The position numbers and the translations under genes are program-made. From Baekduia alba (lineage in GTDB: Bacteria > Actinomycetota > Thermoleophilia > Solirubrobacterales > Solirubrobacteraceae): a stretch of 64,000 nucleotides of DNA. Shown piece after piece: positions 24,173 to 33,750 of this stretch. The first letter of the stretch is position 1. The number at the start of each line of letters is the position of its first letter. The notes under the pieces were generated by a model. It was not told the DNA's origin. It made no database searches and saw only the letters and a list, made by a program, of their open reading frames with translations. The stretch lies in NCBI RefSeq assembly GCF_028416635.1, contig NZ_CP114013.1, positions 4,960,001 to 5,024,000 of the forward strand, given 5' to 3'.

Positions 24173-25648
24173 ATGAGGCCCAGGAAGCGTTCTGTCCCAA
24201 TCGCGACCACGCCCGCTCCGCCGCTCGATCCCGCGCTCGCGTACCTCGGCGCGCCCGACGATCGCGATGCGATCGTGGCCGCGTGCACCGAGCTCCACCT
24301 CGACGTCGTCGCGGTCGCCGGCGGTGACGCCGACGACCACGACGCCCTCGCGCTCGCGCTCGAAGCGGTCGCCGAAGGCCCCGCGTCCTGCCTGGTCGTG
24401 CGCCGTCTCGGCGACCTGTCGGACGGCGACGGCGGCCTCGCCACCGTGCTGGACCGCATCGACGCCGGCGGCGTCCGCCTCGTCGCCCTCGACGTCGGCC
24501 TCGACACCGCCGCGCCCGCCGGCCGCATGGCCCTGCGCCGCCGCCCGCGGCGTGAAGCGCCGTGGCTGAAGGTGCCGGAGGAGCCGGGCGACGACGCGCC
24601 GCCGACCGCGGAGACGGCGCCGACCGCGGAGGCAGCGACGGGGGAAGCGGTCGCGCCGACCCCGGCGCCGCCCGCTGGGACGGCAGAGCCGGTCGCGGAG
24701 GCACCGCTCACCGCGCCGACGGAGCAGGCCGTCGCGCCACCGCCCGCCGCCGCGCCGACGGAGCAGGCCGTCGCGCCACTACCCGCCGCTGCTCCGCCGC
24801 CCGGCTTCGCTGCGCCACTGCCCGCCGCCGCGCCGCCGCCCACCTTTGCCGCGCCGGCGCAGACCTTCGCCGCGCCGCCGCACCCGAGCTTCGCCGCGCC
24901 GGCCCCGCCCGCCGCCCCCGCTGGGCCCGTCGCCCCGACCAAGCCCCTCGCGGCCATCGGCTACGCCTCGGCGGCCGGCAGCAAGGACGGCGCCGCCGCC
25001 GCGATGTGCGCCCAGCGGGAGGCGATCGCGCGGCATTGCGACGGGTGCCCGGACCTCACGCTGCTGGAGCTGGTCGGCGACCGCGAGTCCACCAAGGACC
25101 GCAAGGCGCTCGACCGGCCCGGCCTCTCGCACACGCTGCAGCGGATCGCCGCCGGCGAAGTCACGTGCCTCGTCATCTGCGGCCTGGACCACCTCTCCCG
25201 CTCGGTCGCCGAGCTCGGGCAGCTGCTGCGCTGGCTGGACAAGATGGACGTCCGGCTCGTCGCGCTCGACCTCGACCTCGACACCGCGACGGAGTCCGGC
25301 CGGACGACGACGAGGGCGCTGGCCGCCGTGTCGGCCTGGGAGCGGGAGCGGCTGTCGGAGCGGACTAAGGCCGGGCTCGCCGCGGCCCGCGCCAAGCGCC
25401 ACGCCGGCACCGGCGCGGCCGCGCAGCGCACCGCGGCCGTCCACCAGCGGATCGCCGCGATGCGCGCCGACGGCATGACGCTGCAGGCGATCGCCGACGT
25501 CCTCAACGCCGAGGGCGTCCCGACGCAGCGCGGCGGCGCGAAGTGGCGGCCGTCGTCGGTCCAGTCCGCCGCCGGCTACAAGCGCCCGCAGCACGCGCGC
25601 TCGGCCAGCCGGCTCCCGGACGCGACCCCGGCGCCGACGCCCTCCTAG
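24173..25648 (+). CDS. Serine-recombinase-like protein with two resolvase-type halves and no catalytic serine
   Basis: A 491-aa protein. Residues about 40-115 are a degenerate resolvase core (CLVVRRLGDLSDGDGGLATV, VRLVALDVGLDTAAPAGRM). A Pro/Ala-rich linker (about 130-255) has repeated PTEQAVAP and FAAP units. Residues 260-405 are a fuller resolvase core (IGYASAAGS, LVICGLDHLSRSVAELGQLL, VRLVALDLDLDTATESGR), followed by a helix-turn-helix-type tail (QAIADVLNAEGVPTQRGGAKW, about 437-457). Catalytic positions are lost: the usual YARVS reads YASAA, so Arg8 and Ser10 are gone, and the DRLSR arginine is H340. Strand exchange is unlikely. DNA binding or scaffolding is possible. GGAAGG precedes the ATG. 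It lies upstream of the repeat-protein operon, but separate transcription is likely given the 277-bp gap. Confidence 0.8.
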   Translation: MRPRKRSVPIATTPAPPLDPALAYLGAPDDRDAIVAACTELHLDVVAVAGGDADDHDALALALEAVAEGPASCLVVRRLGDLSDGDGGLATVLDRIDAGGVRLVALDVGLDTAAPAGRMALRRRPRREAPWLKVPEEPGDDAPPTAETAPTAEAATGEAVAPTPAPPAGTAEPVAEAPLTAPTEQAVAPPPAAAPTEQAVAPLPAAAPPPGFAAPLPAAAPPPTFAAPAQTFAAPPHPSFAAPAPPAAPAGPVAPTKPLAAIGYASAAGSKDGAAAAMCAQREAIARHCDGCPDLTLLELVGDRESTKDRKALDRPGLSHTLQRIAAGEVTCLVICGLDHLSRSVAELGQLLRWLDKMDVRLVALDLDLDTATESGRTTTRALAAVSAWERERLSERTKAGLAAARAKRHAGTGAAAQRTAAVHQRIAAMRADGMTLQAIADVLNAEGVPTQRGGAKWRPSSVQSAAGYKRPQHARSASRLPDATPAPTPS

Positions 25649-25925
25649 CCGTCCGACCAGACCGGGGCGGATTTCCGCAAGCGGTCGGGCTGCGTAAACG
25701 GCCCGGCCCATTGCGAACTCCGCACCTTCCGGCCGATACTCATCGGCGAGCATTCGGACCACCAGACCAACGCCGTCGATGTCGGAGACGGCGCTGGGCC
25801 TCCGGAGTCCGAGCCCTCGCAGACGCAGTGAGGGCATCGTCTTTCGATGAGCCGGACGCACGCCGTGCGCCCGACGGGCACGCATCGCTGCCCGCAACCA
25901 GCTGCACACCATCGAAAGGAGCTAG
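25649..25925 (+). other. Leader/promoter region of the repeat-protein operon
   Basis: 277 bp without a convincing ORF. It contains hairpin-forming stretches (GGGC...GCCC around 25796-25816) and a strong AAAGGAG site just before the ATG at 25926. The length allows a structured 5-prime leader. I compared it by eye with c-di-GMP and c-di-AMP riboswitch cores and found no match, so I assign no riboswitch. Confidence 0.4.
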
Positions 25926-28900
25926 ATGAGCGCTAGACGCTTCATCGCTCTGGGGACCAGCGTTGCAGCGCTGGTGATCGGTGGTCCGATCGCTTCGGCG
26001 GTCGCGGCCGGCTCAGCCGATCAGACGGGCGCCCAGTCGTCCTCGTCCCAGGGCTCCAATTCCGGTAGCACCACCCAGGGGGCGGGCCAGTCACAGGCCG
26101 CCGCCAGCCCCGCCTGCACGGCCGGGTGCGGTGGATCGGGCCAAGCCCAGCAGCTCTCGCAGGATTCCGACACGACGCAGAGCGCAAGCTCCAGCGCCAA
26201 CGCCAACCAGAACGCTGTCAACGCGAACGTCCCAGTGGTCGTGAGCGGTGACGGCGTGTCGGTCGGTTCCCAGACGTACGGGAACATCGCACCGGCAAGC
26301 GGCTCGAGTTCCGCAACCCAGAACGCGAGCAACGCGGCCACCTCGTCCGCGTCCAACTCGGCGAGCACCACCCAGAACGCCAACCAGACCCAGACCAGCA
26401 GCAGCAGCTGCCAGGTGGGCTGTGGCGGTTCCGGGCAGGCGCAGTCGTCGAGCCAGGACGCGTCCACGAGCCAGTCCGCCGATTCGTCAGCCGACGCCTA
26501 CCAGAACGCGGTCAACGCGAACGTTCCGGTCGTCGTCGCGGGCGGGTCCGTCACGAGCGGCAACAGCTCTGCCACGCAGAACAACAGCAACTCGGCGGAC
26601 TCCTCGGCCAGCAACACGGCGTCGACGGATCAGAGCTCGTCCCAGACCCAGTCGAGCAGCAGCAGCTGCCAGGCGGGCTGTGGCGGCTCCGGCCAGGTGC
26701 AGGAGAGCAGTCAGTACGCGAGCACCGACCAGTCTGCGGACTCGTCGGCGACCGCGACCCAGAACGGCGTCAACGCGAACGTCCCGGTCATCGTGGCCGG
26801 CGGCGACGTGACGGCGGGGCGACAGCTCCGCCGACCAGACGCTGGACAACTCGGCCAGTTCGGAGGCGTCCAACTCCGCCGAGACCACCCAGAACGGACC
26901 CCAAACCCAGACCGCCAGCAGCAGCTGCGGCTACGGGTGCGGGGGCTCCGGCCAGGCGCAGTCGTCTGACCAGAGTGCCGACACCTCGCAGGAGGCCTCT
27001 TCGTCCGCCACGGCGGATCAGAAGGGCGTCAACGCGAACACGCCGGTCTCCATCAGCGGTGGGGACTACGTCGGAAGCTCGAGCAATGCATCGCAGAGCA
27101 ACAGCAACTCGGCGTCGTCCAATGCCTCCAACAGCGCATCGACCAGCCAGTACAACGACCAGACCCAGACGGCCAGCTCAAGCTGCGTCGCCGGGTGTGG
27201 TGGCAGCGGTCAGGCGCAGGAGAGCTACCAGGACGCGTCCACCTACCAGGACGCGGATTCGGACGCGACGGCAGATCAGACGGGCACGAACGCAAATGCG
27301 CCCGTCGAGTTCGTCGACCCCCCGAGCTCTGCTTCGCAGAGCCTGGACAACTCGGCCGACTCCTCGGCCAGCAACGACGCCGACACCACCCAGGACTCGT
27401 CACAGTCCCAGTCGAGCAGCGACAGCTGCGAGGCCGGCTGCGGCGGCTCGGGCCAGGCGCAGGCGTCCTACCAGACCGCTTCCACCGATCAGGAAGCGGA
27501 CTCCACCGCTGACGCGACCCAGAAGGGCACGAACAGCGGCGGCTCGCAGGACAACTCCAATTACGCGGACTCCTCGGCGGACAACTACGCGTCCACCGAC
27601 CAGTCGACGTCGCAGGACCAGTCGAGCAGCGACAGCTGCTCGGTCGGTTGCGGCGGCTCGGGCCAGGTCCAGGAGGCGTCCCAGGACGCGTCCACCGACC
27701 AGAGCGCGTACTCGGAGGCCAACGCCGACCAGACCGGCACCAACGCCGGTGGCGATCAGTCGCTGGACAACTCGGCATCGTCCGAGGCGTCCAACGACGC
27801 GGACACGACCCAGGATCCGGAGCAGTACCAGGACAGCAGCGACAGCTGCGACGCTGGCTGCGGCGGCTCGGGTCAGGCCCAGTCGGCGGACCAGACGGCC
27901 GAGACCGATCAGTCGGCCGACTCCGCGGCGTACGCGACCCAGACGGGCGTGAACATCGCGGGCACGCAGGACAACTCCAACAGCGCGGACTCGTCGGCGT
28001 ACAACAGCGCGTCGACGGACCAGAGCACCTCGCAGGATCAGTCGAGCAGCGACAGCTGCGCGGCCGGCTGCGGCGGCTCGGGCCAGGCCCAGCAGGCGTC
28101 CCAGGACGCCTACACGGACCAGGACGCGTCCTCGGAGGCCGACGCCGATCAGTACGGCGTCAACACCGCCGGCGCGCAGTACTTGGACAACTCGGCTTCG
28201 TCCGAGGCGTCCAACGACGCGTCGACCTACCAGGATCTCGACCAGAGCCAGGACAGCAGCGACAGCTGCGAAGTCGGGTGCGGCGGTTCCGGGCAGGCGC
28301 AGTCGGCGGATCAGTCGGCCGAGACCGATCAGTCGGCCGACTCCGCGGCGTACGCGACCCAGAAGGGCGAGAACGTCGCGGGTGTGCAGGACAACTCCAA
28401 CGATGCGGACTCGTCGTCGTACAACACGGCGACGACCGACCAGGGCACCTCGCAGGACCAGTCGAGCAGCGACAGCTGCGCGGCCGGCTGCGGCGGCTCC
28501 GGTCAGGTCCAGGAGGCGTCTCAGGGCGCCTCGACGGATCAGTCCGCGGACTCGGAGGCCGACGCCGACCAGACCGGCCTCAACGCCGGTGGGTCGCAGG
28601 CGCTGGACAACTCGGCTTCGTCCGAGGCGTCCAACGACGCGTCTACCACGCAGGATCCCGAGCAGTCCCAGTCGAGCAGCAGCAGCTGCGAGGCGGGTTG
28701 TGGCGGGTCCGGCCAGGCGCAGGCGTCGGATCAGTGGGCCGAGACGGACCAGGCGGCCTGCTCGTCAGCGGACGCGACCCAGAAGGGCACGAACGCCGGC
28801 GGTTCGCAGTACCTGGACAACTCGGCGGACTCGTCCGCCGACAACGAGGCGACCACGGACCAGTACACCGACCAGGATCAGTCGACCGGCGCGGCCGTCG

Positions 28901-29085
28901 CAAGCGTGAAGAGCGCTTCCGACGAGTCGGACGGAGCGGCGGGCGACGGCGGTCCCGGTCAGGTGCAGGACGCGACGCAGTGCGCGACCACGTACCAGGA
29001 CGCCTACTCAGAGGCCAATGCCGATCAGACCGGCACCAACGCCTCGACCGACTCGGGCGATGTTGAGGATCTCATCAACGCCTAA
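25926..29085 (+). CDS. Secreted Gln/Ser/Asn/Asp-rich repeat protein, candidate surface fibre; one-base frameshift
   Basis: About 1,052 aa when read through one frameshift. It has a signal peptide (MSARRFIALGTSVAALVIGG, cleavage near SAVAA-GS). The rest is low-complexity, acidic and made of repeats centred on CxxGCGGSGQxQ, with Gln/Asn at regular intervals (for example ASTDQSADSEADADQTG). Twelve cysteine motifs are present, plus a cysteine-free thirteenth near the C-terminus. The pattern recalls solenoid or amyloid-like surface proteins such as curlin repeats; this is analogy, not homology. After codon GCG at 26814 a run of four G shifts the frame. With three G, the repeat pattern continues without a break to the stop at 29085. 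AAAGGAG supports the start. The last 26 bp overlap the next gene. Confidence 0.8.
26115..28980 (+). repeat. Higher-order coding repeat: 258-bp units, then 210-bp units alternating A/B
   Basis: The first Cys codon of each CxxGCGG motif lies at 26115, 26409, 26667, 26926, 27184, 27427, 27637, 27847, 28057, 28267, 28477 and 28687. Spacing is about 258 bp (86 aa) in the middle part. It then becomes exactly 210 bp (70 aa) six times. In the 210-bp part, units alternate between type A (EASNDAxTxQDxxQxQ before the motif) and type B (STDQSTSQDQSSSDSC), giving a 420-bp dimeric repeat. The final unit has lost its cysteines (GGPGQVQ near 28951). Confidence 0.85.
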
Positions 29086-30067
29086 GGCGGCATTCGTGCT
29101 GTGGGCGGCGGCGCTCGTCGCCGTCGCCCCGGCGCGAGCGGCCGATCCGCCGCCGTCGCAGGCCCCGCAGCCCGCGAGCGGCGCGGTCGCGCAGAACGTC
29201 GCGATCACCATCCAGCTGCTCTGGCAGGTCCAGGAGGGCTGCGCGCGCCGCTGCGTCGGGACCAGCCAGACGCAGACCGCCGCGCAGACGGCGACGACCG
29301 TGCAGGTCGCGGCGTCGACCGGCGCCGCGGGCGCGGTGGCGTCCAACACCAGCGCGACGATCCAGCTGATCGTGCAGACGCAGCTCGGGTGCGTGGCGTT
29401 CTGCCTCGGGACGACGCGCGTGCAGGTCGCGTCGCAGCGCGCCGACGCGACGCAGCTGGCGTCCGCGATCTCGGGCGCGCTGGCGGCGGGATCCAACGAC
29501 GCGTTCTTCACCCAGCTCGTGTGGCAGTACCAAGATGTATGTCTTGAAGCGTGCGACGACGTCGACGCCCGGCAGGTCGTGGAGCAGGCGGCCAGCGCCG
29601 CCCAGGACGCCGGCGGCTCGGCCGCGGCGCTCCCGCTGCCGCCCGTCGCGCCCGACCTCGGCGCGTTCACGGCCTGGCTGGCGACGGTCGCGGCGACCGC
29701 GACGGTGGACGTCGCGCAGCAGCGCGACATCGCCGCCTGCCTGGAGGACTGCACCGGCGACGTGCAGGTCCAGATCAGCGTGCAGGAGGCCACGACGGCG
29801 CAAGCAAGCGTGGCGACGGCGACCGCGGCGATCCCCTCCGCGGCCGCTGACCCCGAGGACACGGGGTCGCCCGCCCCGCCGGCGGCGGCGACGGCCGCAT
29901 CTGTCGCCGCCGCCGCGCCCGTGGGGCACGAGCGCGCGCCCGCGAAGGCGCGCAAGCAGCAGCGACGGCGCTGCGCACGACATCGCCACGTGGCACGGAG
30001 GGCGATGCGCAGCACGCTCGATCAGCGATGGAAGCAGACGAACGAAGGGATCCGTTGTGGGACGTGA
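29060..30067 (+). CDS. Secreted protein with four CxxxC/Gln-rich modules, partner of the repeat protein
   Basis: A 335-aa protein. The signal peptide is MLRISSTPKAAFVLWAAALV with cleavage near APARA-AD. Four modules follow, each with Gln-rich strands and a CxxxC pair: C61/C65, C111/C115, C161/C165 and C227/C231 (for example TIQLLWQVQEGCARRCVGTS, then QTQTAAQTATTVQV). The Q-x-Q strand after the cysteines mirrors the motif of the upstream repeat protein, so it may be a cap, nucleator or minor subunit. The C-terminus is Ala/Pro-rich, then very basic (KARKQQRRRCARHRHVARR), suiting wall or membrane binding. The start overlaps the upstream gene by 26 bp. A GTG at 29096 is an alternative. Confidence 0.7.
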   Translation: MLRISSTPKAAFVLWAAALVAVAPARAADPPPSQAPQPASGAVAQNVAITIQLLWQVQEGCARRCVGTSQTQTAAQTATTVQVAASTGAAGAVASNTSATIQLIVQTQLGCVAFCLGTTRVQVASQRADATQLASAISGALAAGSNDAFFTQLVWQYQDVCLEACDDVDARQVVEQAASAAQDAGGSAAALPLPPVAPDLGAFTAWLATVAATATVDVAQQRDIAACLEDCTGDVQVQISVQEATTAQASVATATAAIPSAAADPEDTGSPAPPAAATAASVAAAAPVGHERAPAKARKQQRRRCARHRHVARRAMRSTLDQRWKQTNEGIRCGT

Positions 30068-31760
30068 GCGAGGCATCCTGGCGCTGGGCGCGAGCCTGGC
30101 GCTCACCTGGGCGCTCGTCGCCGCGCCGGCGGCGCTGGCGACGCCGCCGACCGTGGACTTCAGCGCCGCGCCGACCACGGCGCGCGTAAGCCAGAGCATC
30201 GGCTTCACCGCGGCGGCCAGCGGCAACGACGGGGCGACGATCGCGTCGCTGGCGTGGTCGTTCGGCGACGGCGCGACAGGCGGCGGCGCCTCCACGGCGC
30301 ACGCCTACGGCGCGACCGGCGACTACGGCGTGACGCTGACGGCGACCGACTCCAACGGCGAGACGGCGAGCGCGTCGCACGGCGTGCACGTGGTCGGCAA
30401 CCCGACCGCGTCGTTCTCCTTCGGCCCCAACGTGCCGAACGTCGGCGACACCGTGTCCTTCGACGGGCGCGCGTCCGGCGACCCGGGCGGGGCGATCCAG
30501 TCCTACGCCTGGGCGTTCGGCGACGGCGCGACCGGCGCGGGCGCGCAGCCTTCCCACGCCTACGCGACGGCGGGCGACAAGGCCGTGACGCTGACGATCA
30601 CCGCGGCGCTCGACGGCCGCACCGCGTCGACGTCGAAGACCGTGCACGTCAACGTGCCGCCGAAGGCGTCGTTCGTCTTCGCCGCGGTCAACGCGCCTGC
30701 GGGGCAGGACCCGTTCACGCCGGTCCTCAACCAGCAGGTCGCGTTCAGCGCGCAGGGCTCGAACGACCCCGACGGCTCGGTGACGAGCTGGGCGTGGGAC
30801 CTCGGGACCGGGACGTTCGGGGCGCCTTCGGCCGTGTCGTGGCTGATCACGTCGTTCACCACCGCGGGCAAGAAGGACATCAGGTTGAAGGTGACCGACA
30901 ACGGCGGCGCGACGACGACGACCACCACGTCATTCCGCATCAACACGCCACCCATCGCGGCGTTCGACGTCGCGCCGGCCGCGCCGGAGACCGGCGACAC
31001 CGTCACGTTCTCCTCGACGGCGTCGGATCCCGACGGCGTCGCGGACCTCGGCTCGACGTCGTGGGACCTCAACGGCGACGGCACCTACGGCGACGCGACG
31101 GGGCCGACGGCCAAGGCGGTGTACCTGACCGCCGGCACGTACACGATCGGCGAGAAGGTGACCGACAAGGGCGGCGCCGCGACGACGACCACCAAGGCCC
31201 TCAACGTGGTCGGGCCGCCGGAGCCGCCGCCGACCGGGGACCCGGGTGACACCGGGACGCCGCCCACGGTCGTGTCCTCGCCGGGCGCGCCGGTCGTGCT
31301 CGGTCCCACGCCGCCGACCGCCGGCTCGTCGGGCAAGCCGGCCGCGACGGCCGCGGCGTCCGCCTCGGCCTCGTCGGCGCCCAAGATCGTGCTGAAGGGC
31401 CTGCGGGGCGTCCGCGTCCAGCTCGCCGGCAGCGTGACGGCGAGCCGTACCCGGATCACCAAGATCATGGTGTCGGGCCCAGAGGGCGCGCGGGTCGTGG
31501 TCCGCTGCCGCGGCGGCGGATGCCCGGGCGGCAAGGCGCTGCGCAAGACGATGGGCACGTCCGGGCAGCTGCGGGTCAAGGCGCTCGAGCGGACGCTGCG
31601 CGCGGGCGCGACGGTGACGGTCTCGCTGGCCAAGCCGGGCTACGCGACCAAGCGCATCGTGTTGACGATGCGCCGCGGCAAGGCGCCGGCGAGGGCGGAG
31701 AGCTGCCTGATCCCTGGCGCCGACGGCAAGTCCAAGAGCGAGCCATGTCCGGCAGCGTGA
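30057..31760 (+). CDS. Secreted multi-PKD-domain protein
   Basis: A 567-aa protein. The GTG at 30057 follows a GAAGGGA site, overlaps the previous stop, and begins a signal peptide (GILALGASLALTWALVAAPA, cleavage near LA-TPP). Four PKD/Ig-like domains follow, the first two with the classic WSFGDGAT and WAFGDGAT turns and the third and fourth with WAWDLG and WDLNGDG. A Pro/Ser/Ala linker (about 390-445) leads to a basic C-terminal domain (KIVLKGLRGVRVQLAGSVTA, CRGGGCPGG). PKD domains are extracellular adhesion or spacer modules. It is most likely an exported structural or adhesive component of this locus. Confidence 0.85.
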   Translation: MGRERGILALGASLALTWALVAAPAALATPPTVDFSAAPTTARVSQSIGFTAAASGNDGATIASLAWSFGDGATGGGASTAHAYGATGDYGVTLTATDSNGETASASHGVHVVGNPTASFSFGPNVPNVGDTVSFDGRASGDPGGAIQSYAWAFGDGATGAGAQPSHAYATAGDKAVTLTITAALDGRTASTSKTVHVNVPPKASFVFAAVNAPAGQDPFTPVLNQQVAFSAQGSNDPDGSVTSWAWDLGTGTFGAPSAVSWLITSFTTAGKKDIRLKVTDNGGATTTTTTSFRINTPPIAAFDVAPAAPETGDTVTFSSTASDPDGVADLGSTSWDLNGDGTYGDATGPTAKAVYLTAGTYTIGEKVTDKGGAATTTTKALNVVGPPEPPPTGDPGDTGTPPTVVSSPGAPVVLGPTPPTAGSSGKPAATAAASASASSAPKIVLKGLRGVRVQLAGSVTASRTRITKIMVSGPEGARVVVRCRGGGCPGGKALRKTMGTSGQLRVKALERTLRAGATVTVSLAKPGYATKRIVLTMRRGKAPARAESCLIPGADGKSKSEPCPAA

Positions 31761-32263
31761 GCGGCGCCAAGACGGTGCGCGAGGCGGCGCAGTGGAGCGG
31801 GCTGCGCCGCGCGGCCGCGCTGGTCGCCGCGGCGGGCGCGTGCTTCGGCATCGCCTACGGCGCGGGCGCGGTGACGCGCGACGACAGCGCGCCGGAGGCC
31901 GACGTCGCGCCGGCGCGGGCCGCGGCCGCGGACGCGACCGCCGCCCCGCGCACGCTGCGCCTGGCCCCGGCGGCGGCGCTGCCGGCGCCGGCGCCGGCGG
32001 CGCGGCGGGTCGCGGTGCGGGCCAAGCGCGCGGCGAGCGCGCCGGCCGCGCGGTCGGTCGCCGCAACGCCGAGGACCGTCCGCGTGTCGGCGCCCGCGCG
32101 CAGCGCCCCGGTCCGGACCAGCCGGCCGGTCGCGGTGCGCCAGCCCGTGCGCAGCACACCGGTGTCCAACCCGGCCCCGCAGCCGAAGGCCGCGCCCAAG
32201 ACGAGCACGCCGGCGAGCAAGCCGGCGGCCCAGACCATCACCTTCTTCGACGACGGCGGTTGA
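31745..32263 (+). CDS. Ala/Pro-rich membrane-anchored protein of unknown function
   Basis: A 172-aa protein. One hydrophobic helix lies near the N-terminus (LRRAAALVAAAGACFGIAYGAG), either a signal anchor or an uncleaved signal. The remainder is low-complexity Ala/Pro/Arg/Ser-rich and probably extended outside the cell, ending in the conserved-looking ITFFDDGG. The gene overlaps the PKD gene by 16 bp and ends 5 bp before the kinase-like gene, so it belongs to the same transcript. No family is recognised. A wall-spanning linker is one possibility. Confidence 0.6.
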   Translation: MSGSVSGAKTVREAAQWSGLRRAAALVAAAGACFGIAYGAGAVTRDDSAPEADVAPARAAAADATAAPRTLRLAPAAALPAPAPAARRVAVRAKRAASAPAARSVAATPRTVRVSAPARSAPVRTSRPVAVRQPVRSTPVSNPAPQPKAAPKTSTPASKPAAQTITFFDDGG

Positions 32264-32268
32264 TCGCG

Positions 32269-33750
32269 ATGGACATCAGCAAGGACATGGACAACGCGGT
32301 CGTGGACGGCTTCGCCGTCGCGCGGGTCGTCGCCGAGCGCGACGGCTGGACCGTCGCCGAGGCGTCGAAGGAGGGACGCAAGGTGCAGCTGCACGTGTCG
32401 AGCCCCGCGGTCGCGCGCGACGCGGCGGCCGTCGCCCGGATCGAGCGGCTCGACGCGCTGCGGGCCGCGCCGCGCAAGCCGGGCGACCTCGCGCTGTCGC
32501 TCCCGATCGCCGCGGGGCGCGACGGCGACCGGCTGTACGTCGCGCGGCCGCGGATCGCGGCGGGCACGACGCTCGCCGACCGCCTCGCCGAAGGGCCGAT
32601 GGAGCGCGACGAGGCCGTCCGGATCCTGAGCCTCGTCGCCGGTGCGCTGGACACGCTCGCGGCGTTGGGCCTCCCCGCCGCGCACCTCACCCCGGGGCGG
32701 ATCGCGCTCACGCCGCGCAAGCCGACGCAACCGCTGTTGTACGACTACGGGTTCCCGACGCACGGCGCCGAGGCGATCGTCGACGTCGCGGACTACGTCG
32801 CCCCCGAGGTCGCCGGCGGCGCGCCGCTGACGACGGCGGGCAACGTGTACGCCTTGGCCTGCGTCCTGGTCGAGTGCCTGACCGGCGCGCCGCCGTTCCC
32901 CTACGACCGGCCGCTGCTCGTCCTCGACGCGCACCGCCGCGAGCCTCCGCCACGCGTGGCGGAGGCGACCGGCCTGCCGCCCGAGCTCGACGACGTGCTG
33001 CAGAGCGCGCTGAACAAGCGGCCCGAGCATCGCCAGCAGTCGGCGGCGGGCCTGCTGCGCGCGGTGCAGCGCTCGCTGGGACGCCGGCGCGTGCCGATCC
33101 CGGTGCTCGCCGCCCCGCCCGTCAAGACCCCGAAGACCTCGCCGCGCGCCACCGCGGCGACCTCGCCGCCCGCCACCGCCTCGCCGCGGGCGACGAGCCC
33201 GCCTCGACGGCACCGGACCCGGCGCAAGGTGCGCTGGCCGGTGCCGTCCGGCGTGGGCGTCGCCGCGGTGCTGCTGCTGGCCACGACCGCGGGCTACGCG
33301 ACCGCCACGAGCGACCCGCGGCCGGCGGTGGTCGCGCCGGCGCCGTTGGGTCCGGCGGCCGCGTCGGTCGCCGATCCGAACGCGAGCGAGCGCGCCGCGC
33401 TCCTGAGCGCGGTCGACCGGGCGATCGACCGCCTGGACCGCGACCGCGCCACCGCCCGCGAAGACCTGCGCGCCGCCCGACATACCCGGGCGCAGGCGGC
33501 GGCCGCCGCACGGCTGGCGGCGGTGTATCGCGACGCGCGGCGGGCGCTGCCCCCGACCGCCGCGCTCGCGGCCGCGGCCCCGGCCCGCGCGCTGGACCCG
33601 GCGCTGGCCTCCGTGCAGCGCGCCTACCACCGCCTCGCGACGACGGCCCGCGCCGGCGACGCCGCGGCGTTCCGCAGCGCGGCCCGCGGGATCGTGCAGC
33701 GCGAGGCGACGCTGGACGCGACGCTGCGCCAGCTCACGCGGGAGGCCTGA
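32269..33750 (+). CDS. Membrane-anchored divergent Ser/Thr kinase, probable pseudokinase
   Basis: A 493-aa protein. Residues about 10-270 follow the eukaryotic-type kinase fold: HLTPGRI at 139-145 in place of HRDLKPxN, YDYGF at 158-162 in place of DFG (D159 kept), then APE at 178-180 and YALACVLVECLTGAPPF. The HRD aspartate is replaced by Thr and no Gly-rich loop is visible, so catalysis is doubtful. A Pro/Thr/Arg linker leads to one membrane helix (about 326-344: VPSGVGVAAVLLLATTAGYA). An outside helical domain (about 370-493) follows. This layout fits a sensor that reports on the cell surface. It is the last gene of the repeat-protein operon. Confidence 0.75.
   Translation: MDISKDMDNAVVDGFAVARVVAERDGWTVAEASKEGRKVQLHVSSPAVARDAAAVARIERLDALRAAPRKPGDLALSLPIAAGRDGDRLYVARPRIAAGTTLADRLAEGPMERDEAVRILSLVAGALDTLAALGLPAAHLTPGRIALTPRKPTQPLLYDYGFPTHGAEAIVDVADYVAPEVAGGAPLTTAGNVYALACVLVECLTGAPPFPYDRPLLVLDAHRREPPPRVAEATGLPPELDDVLQSALNKRPEHRQQSAAGLLRAVQRSLGRRRVPIPVLAAPPVKTPKTSPRATAATSPPATASPRATSPPRRHRTRRKVRWPVPSGVGVAAVLLLATTAGYATATSDPRPAVVAPAPLGPAAASVADPNASERAALLSAVDRAIDRLDRDRATAREDLRAARHTRAQAAAAARLAAVYRDARRALPPTAALAAAAPARALDPALASVQRAYHRLATTARAGDAAAFRSAARGIVQREATLDATLRQLTREA

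What the first reader, a model, noticed from the sequence alone, without database searches (positions are those of the whole stretch)
25926..33750. Five-gene overlapping operon for a candidate repeat-fibre surface system with a kinase-like sensor
Seen: a secreted Q/S/N/D-rich cysteine-repeat protein, a smaller secreted protein with four CxxxC modules echoing the same Q-x-Q strand, a multi-PKD protein, an Ala/Pro-rich membrane-anchored protein and a membrane-anchored divergent kinase. They share one strand, with overlaps of 26, 11 and 16 bp and a 5-bp gap. Inference: the first gene makes a polymer or solenoid at the surface, the second caps or nucleates it, the PKD and Ala/Pro proteins anchor it, and the kinase-like protein senses it. 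I know of no named system with this set.
Basis: partly seen in the sequence, partly recalled or inferred. Interest (0 to 1): 0.88.

Follow-up and report, generated by a model that had tools for sequence, protein, structure and literature searches.

The report
Undescribed Q/N-ladder surface fibre operon
A soil actinobacterium carries a five-gene block whose main product is a long secreted repeat protein, predicted to stack like the amyloid fibres curli and Fap but unrelated to them in sequence, followed by a smaller protein built from the same motif and three membrane or surface proteins that so far occur with it only in one close relative.

Summary
The five genes lie on one strand at 25926-33750 with the stated overlaps (26, 11, 16 bp) and 5-bp gap. 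One point was missed: the repeat gene (R1) is broken in this assembly by an extra G in a GGGG run at 26816-26819, so its ORF closes at 26969. A same-genus genome has the whole block with R1 intact and the three overlaps identical, and dN/dS is equal before and after the break, so it is an assembly error or very recent. R1 (about 1,052 aa, 12 units) belongs to an undescribed repeat family found patchily in Thermoleophilia (5 of 119 genomes sampled). Each unit has two arms with strictly alternating conserved Gln/Ala/Asn/Thr, joined at a CxxGCGGxGQxQ corner; AlphaFold predicts a stacked beta-arch. The second protein (B) repeats this corner in the same register, and wherever B was found (4 genomes) it lies directly downstream of R1. 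The last gene is a PknB-derived pseudokinase. The PKD, Ala/Pro and pseudokinase genes were found with R1-B only within the genus. Best reading: a cross-beta surface fibre with B as anchor or nucleator, working like curli or Fap without being related. Polymerisation and sensing are unproven.

The parts
25926..26816 (+). R1, first part: signal peptide, repeat units 1 and 2 and most of unit 3 (about 86-98 aa units)
   Evidence: 87.5% identical to G138
26816..26819 (+). GGGG run with one base more than the same-genus genome (GGG); shifts the R1 frame
26818..29085 (+). R1, second part in the continuing frame: rest of unit 3 and units 4-12 (70-aa form from the C at 27427) and a Cys-poor end unit
   Evidence: 81.7% identical to G138
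29060..30067 (+). B: smaller secreted protein (335 aa) with four Q-x3-Q-x-Q-x2-C-x3-C-type modules (CxxxC at 29240, 29390, 29540, 29738) and a basic C-terminus
   Evidence: homologues directly 3' of R1 in G138, L017, L019
30057..31760 (+). Secreted protein with four PKD domains and an Ala/Pro linker, 567 aa
   Evidence: PF18911 3.6e-52, four stretches
31745..32263 (+). AP: 172-aa protein with one N-terminal membrane segment, a basic Ala/Pro/Arg stalk and a conserved TFFDDG end
32269..33750 (+). K: membrane pseudokinase (PknB-like fold, beta3 Lys and HRD Asp lost, DYG in place of DFG), one membrane segment, helical outer region
25649..25925 (+). Upstream intergenic region; blocks conserved with G138 and a Shine-Dalgarno (GAAAGGAG) before R1

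Best explanation
The block encodes a surface fibre. R1 is exported through its signal peptide and folds or polymerises as a cross-beta stack: each 70-87-residue unit forms one layer of two long beta arms, whose inward faces are ladders of Gln, Ala, Asn and Thr, with a CxxxC pair lined up along one edge. B carries the same Cys corner and arm starts in shorter, more hydrophobic form and acts as the minor subunit that templates or anchors the end of the R1 stack. The PKD protein and the basic membrane-anchored AP stalk hold the strongly acidic fibre at the envelope, and K, a catalytically dead receptor-type kinase, couples it to the cytoplasm. Shown: gene layout, family, alternation, register match of R1 and B, R1-B linkage in four genomes, loss of kinase residues. 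Predicted only: the stacked fold. Inferred: polymerisation, nucleation, anchoring, signalling.
For: Motif pattern 13 hits against 0 in shuffles. R1 family with a constant unit of about 87 aa in other Thermoleophilia. Alternating conservation: mean column entropy 0.40 vs 1.68 and 0.31 vs 2.03 bits, none of 20,000 permutations as extreme. AlphaFold of four units: pLDDT 79.8, pTM 0.72, two long strand runs per unit; the second look includes CsgA (Z 6.1, rmsd 8.1) and FapC (Z 3.6, rmsd 13.8) among beta-solenoids, and FapC is Foldseek's first row, E 0.023. B shares T-x-Q-x3-Q-x-Q...C-x3-C-x-G-x2-Q-x-Q-x3-Q-x-A-x-T-x-Q with R1. B found only directly 3' of R1. In G218 B ends in a membrane segment with a basic tail. 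Overlaps of 26, 11 and 16 bp are identical in G138. dN/dS 0.31/0.32 for R1 and about 0.44-0.60 for the other four (from dN and dS). Net charge R1 -126, AP +16, K +19.
Against: Only two of the five AlphaFold models are above pLDDT 60, and the alignment holds overlapping shifted rows of the same proteins; structure matches are weak (no Foldseek E under 0.001, Z under 7, and SufB/SufD rank as high). The B model is poor (pLDDT 42.8). PKD, AP and K were not seen with R1 outside the genus. One relative's R1 carries its own LPFTG wall-sorting end (L107), which suits a single anchored stalk. Large hydrophobic residues typical of known amyloid cores are scarce in R1. No transcript or protein data.
Confidence: 0.45

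Rival explanations
1. R1 is a single-molecule wall- or membrane-held solenoid stalk (adhesin-like) that does not polymerise; B is a second surface protein that clamps its base.
For: L107's R1 ends in LPFTG, a membrane segment and a basic tail; unit number varies between species as in stalk proteins; 12 stacked units would already give a particle without polymerisation (inference).
Against: The window's R1 has no sorting signal or C-terminal membrane segment; a separate small protein with the same motif is the pattern of a major and a minor subunit.
Confidence: 0.27
2. R1 and B form the working pair; PKD, AP and K are neighbours with their own role, placed beside them only in this genus. This can be true together with the main reading of R1-B.
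For: R1-B recurs in L017 and L019; K orthologues (over 800 bits) only in G000 and G138 of 101 family genomes, the next hits being ordinary active kinases; recombinase, downstream opposite-strand gene and LysR-type neighbours are equally syntenic in G138. In L017 the contig ends soon after B.
Against: Identical 26, 11 and 16-bp overlaps in both species suggest translational coupling of the first four genes.
Confidence: 0.4
3. R1 is a disordered, hydrophilic, acidic coat protein (desiccation or matrix polymer) and the predicted stack is an artefact of repeats.
For: Composition is 22% Ser, 12% Gln, 10% Asp, net charge -126; three of five AlphaFold models are under pLDDT 50.
Against: Strict every-second-residue conservation in both arms and invariant CxxGCGG and Q/N positions across genera are not expected of a disordered coat.
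Confidence: 0.15
4. R1 in this strain is a pseudogene.
For: Frame break at 26816-26819.
Against: dN/dS equal before and after the break (0.31, 0.32), motifs intact downstream, one extra base in a G run.
Confidence: 0.1

Closest known systems
Fap functional amyloid (FapC major, FapB minor; Pseudomonas)
   Same: Major and minor subunit built of the same imperfect repeats; layers with conserved Asn/Gln; one repeat per cross-beta layer (PMC12392863). FapC 9u4u is Foldseek's first row (E 0.023).
   Different: No sequence relation found; FapC repeats are about 35-40 residues joined by linkers (PMC12392863), R1 units of 70-87 aa follow one another directly; CxxxC inside each unit; no fapD/fapF-type genes beside it.
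Curli (CsgA/CsgB)
   Same: Tightly spaced repeats with conserved Gln/Asn, variable repeat number, separate minor subunit of the same motif (PMC3521004).
   Different: The curli motif QxGx2N does not occur in R1 (0 matches); no PF07012 match; no csg genes in the locus; unit about three to four times longer.
Chaplins and rodlins of Streptomyces
   Same: Secreted actinobacterial surface fibre proteins.
   Different: No Pfam or NCBIfam match for R1 or B; size and repeats differ (own knowledge).
PknB-type receptor kinases and bacterial pseudokinases (e.g. the actinobacterial ActPs families)

Membership tests
Curli (CsgA/CsgB) | QxGx2N repeat motif | tested here: not met
   0 matches in R1, shuffles average 0.85
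Curli (CsgA/CsgB) | Pfam curlin repeat PF07012 | tested here: not met
   no match at E up to 1 for R1 or B
Curli (CsgA/CsgB) | csgG/csgE/csgF genes in the operon | tested here: not met
   the three further genes of the block give PKD, no family and kinase in Pfam; the rest of the genome was not searched
Fap (FapB/FapC) | sequence match to a FapB/FapC repeat model | tested here: inconclusive
   no Pfam or NCBIfam match and no match among PDB sequences; whether the family libraries hold a Fap repeat model was not checked
Fap (FapB/FapC) | Greek-key cross-beta layer | tested here: inconclusive
   FapC 9u4u Foldseek E 0.023, prob 0.06; VIA Z 3.6, rmsd 13.8 over 103
Fap (FapB/FapC) | neighbouring fapD protease and fapF secretion pore | tested here: not met
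   not among the five genes
Functional amyloid (working class) | forms cross-beta fibres in vivo | not testable with these tools
   needs purified protein or cells
Chaplin or rodlin | match to the family model | tested here: not met
   no match for R1 or B in Pfam or NCBIfam
Bacterial Ser/Thr pseudokinase | kinase fold | tested here: met
   by sequence profile: PknB 6i2p E 2.3e-21
Bacterial Ser/Thr pseudokinase | loss of beta3 Lys and HRD Asp | tested here: met
   VQLHV/VELAT for VAVKV; HLTPGRI/PTPQRI for HRDVKPANI in both species
PD-T4-6 phage-defence kinase | active Ser/Thr kinase of that family | tested here: not met
   PADLOC hits cover the general kinase domain; HRD Asp absent
R1 repeat family of Thermoleophilia (defined here) | CxxGCGGxGQxQ corner and alternating Q/A/T/N arms | tested here: met

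The most novel reading that the evidence does not exclude
A third architecture of bacterial two-component amyloid-like fibre, evolved independently of curli and Fap: 70-87-residue layers with Ala/Gln/Asn steric-zipper arms and a Cys ladder along one edge, paired with a short Cys-corner nucleator and, in this genus, wired to the cytoplasm by a pseudokinase.
Probability: 0.3. Interest if true: 0.85.

Novelty: new variant of a known kind. Interest (0 to 1): 0.6.

Why it matters
No fibre or amyloid-like system was found described for Thermoleophilia, a common and hard-to-culture soil class (open-access papers only). If R1 stacks as predicted it gives a third, unrelated solution to the major/minor subunit cross-beta fibre, with an unusually simple Gln/Ala/Asn core and regularly placed cysteines, and intact sequences to express. 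The R1-B pair makes the idea directly testable.

Tried and rejected
A degenerate scan with B alone found nothing in genome contigs; the motif pattern worked instead. Single pattern hits in Streptomyces, Flavobacterium, Proteobacteria and others were taken as chance; the two that were translated (L009, L012) were Arg/Gln-rich frames without repeats. Curli motif tested and absent. Programmed frameshift rejected: the relative has GGG and no shift. An RBS-sequestering leader hairpin was considered; folding z is only -1.06. Weak NCBIfam and Pfam hits of R1 (Uxx_star, EB1_binding, Utp14) were read as composition effects. Viral structure library gave no significant match. VIA-align listed no chain at Z 8 or more. 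Defence role for K rejected.

Full report
What is there. The window is part of a 5.86-Mb single-contig genome. Its family includes genomes whose contigs carry the title 'Solirubrobacterales bacterium': G170 and G101 give the same match coordinates as L026 and L020. Five + strand genes follow one another: R1 25926-29085, B 29060-30067, PKD 30057-31760, AP 31745-32263, K 32269-33750.

Frame break. R1 is not one open frame here. The repeat runs in one frame to 26816 and in the next from 26818; the ORF as deposited stops at 26969, and the list shows no ATG/GTG/TTG-started ORF in the continuing frame before 27949. The same-genus genome G138 has one intact R1 of 1034 codons, with GGG where the window has GGGG. 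Substitutions between the two species give dN/dS 0.31 before and 0.32 after the break. The break is therefore an assembly error or very young, not programmed.

The repeat family. R1 has 12 CxxxC units spaced 98, 86, 86, 86, 81 and six times 70 residues, plus a Cys-poor end unit. A DNA pattern for C-x3-C-x-G-x2-Q-x-Q-x3-Q-x-A-x3-Q hits R1 11 times and B twice, no shuffle at all, and nothing else in the genome. In one scan of 84,980 species genomes it picks out repeat proteins in Thermoleophilia-type MAGs with a constant unit of about 87 aa. A profile finds the family in 5 of 119 class genomes, in two families. The 70-aa units lack mainly the loop NANVPVxIAGGxV present in the long form.

Structure. 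In the unit alignment, conserved residues fall on every second position of two arms: Q-Q-V-Q-A-T-Q-A-A-A-A-Q-A-N and A-Q-A-N-A-A-A-N-S-T-Q. Column entropy differs 0.40 against 1.68 (28 columns) and 0.31 against 2.03 bits (22 columns), never matched in 20,000 permutations. AlphaFold gives two strand runs of about 27-34 residues per unit with pLDDT 79.8 and pTM 0.72, but only two of five models exceed 60. Comparison with solved structures is weak: FapC first at E 0.023; SufB/SufD beta-helices Z 6-7, CsgA 6.1, FapC 3.6. This supports a stacked beta-arch without naming a fold.

B. B has four modules; module 1 reads T-x-Q-x3-Q-x-Q-x2-C-x3-C-x-G-x2-Q-x-Q-x3-Q-x-A-x-T-x-Q, in the register of R1's Cys corner. 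Outside the genus B was found in L017 and L019 only, each time directly 3' of R1; 2 of 101 family genomes have it, both of this genus. In L017's genome it ends in a membrane segment and basic tail. Some R1 contigs end near the gene, so absence elsewhere is partly untested.

PKD, AP, K. PKD has four PKD domains. AP has one membrane segment, a basic stalk and a TFFDDG end kept in G138. K aligns to PknB but has lost the beta3 Lys and HRD Asp in both species; the nearest family members elsewhere are active kinases, at least one with a similar outer helical region. The block of five recurs only in G138, where the neighbours are syntenic too. All genes are under purifying selection.

How it probably works. 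The anatomy fits a major and minor subunit fibre: R1 stacks layer on layer, B offers a Cys-corner template, and acidic R1 (net -126) meets the basic AP stalk (+16) at the envelope. The last step and any signalling through K are inference. A monomeric stalk is the main rival; L107's R1 carries LPFTG.

Known or new. Curli and Fap share the plan of a major and a minor subunit of one repeat, but membership fails: no QxGx2N, no PF07012, no csg or fap genes beside it. No paper in the held library was found to describe the family. It is a new variant of a known kind, with interest mainly in the R1-B pair.

Noticed in passing
L105:13097-14168, L108:9822-11261, L017:1129-2739, also L013, L019, L020, L026: A SigF/SigB-like sigma factor gene, in several with a HicB/ribbon-helix-helix-type membrane protein (fused in L017), lies near R1 in relatives but was not seen beside R1 in this window.
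   Followed up: partly
L107:4110-6620: R1 relative that ends in LPFTG, a membrane segment and a basic tail, a sortase-type wall anchor.
   Followed up: no
L105:8889-10724: A 611-aa secreted Gln-rich protein with CxxxC-free repeats of the same style and a C-terminal membrane segment adjoins R1; possibly the B counterpart in that family.
   Followed up: partly
L010:3786-5240, L031:4983-6311: A YbjN-domain protein follows R1 in the second family (PF10722).
   Followed up: partly
25835-25925: CTTTCGATG and CATCGAAAG, exact inverted copies conserved in G138, flank the R1 leader; the second overlaps the Shine-Dalgarno. RNA folding is not unusual (z -1.06).
   Followed up: partly
24173-25648: Serine recombinase gene with a long Ala/Pro-rich insert directly upstream of R1, syntenic in G138.
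   Followed up: no
L111:256-1959: Active PknB-type kinase whose outer helical region resembles that of K, a likely ancestor type of the pseudokinase.
   Followed up: no
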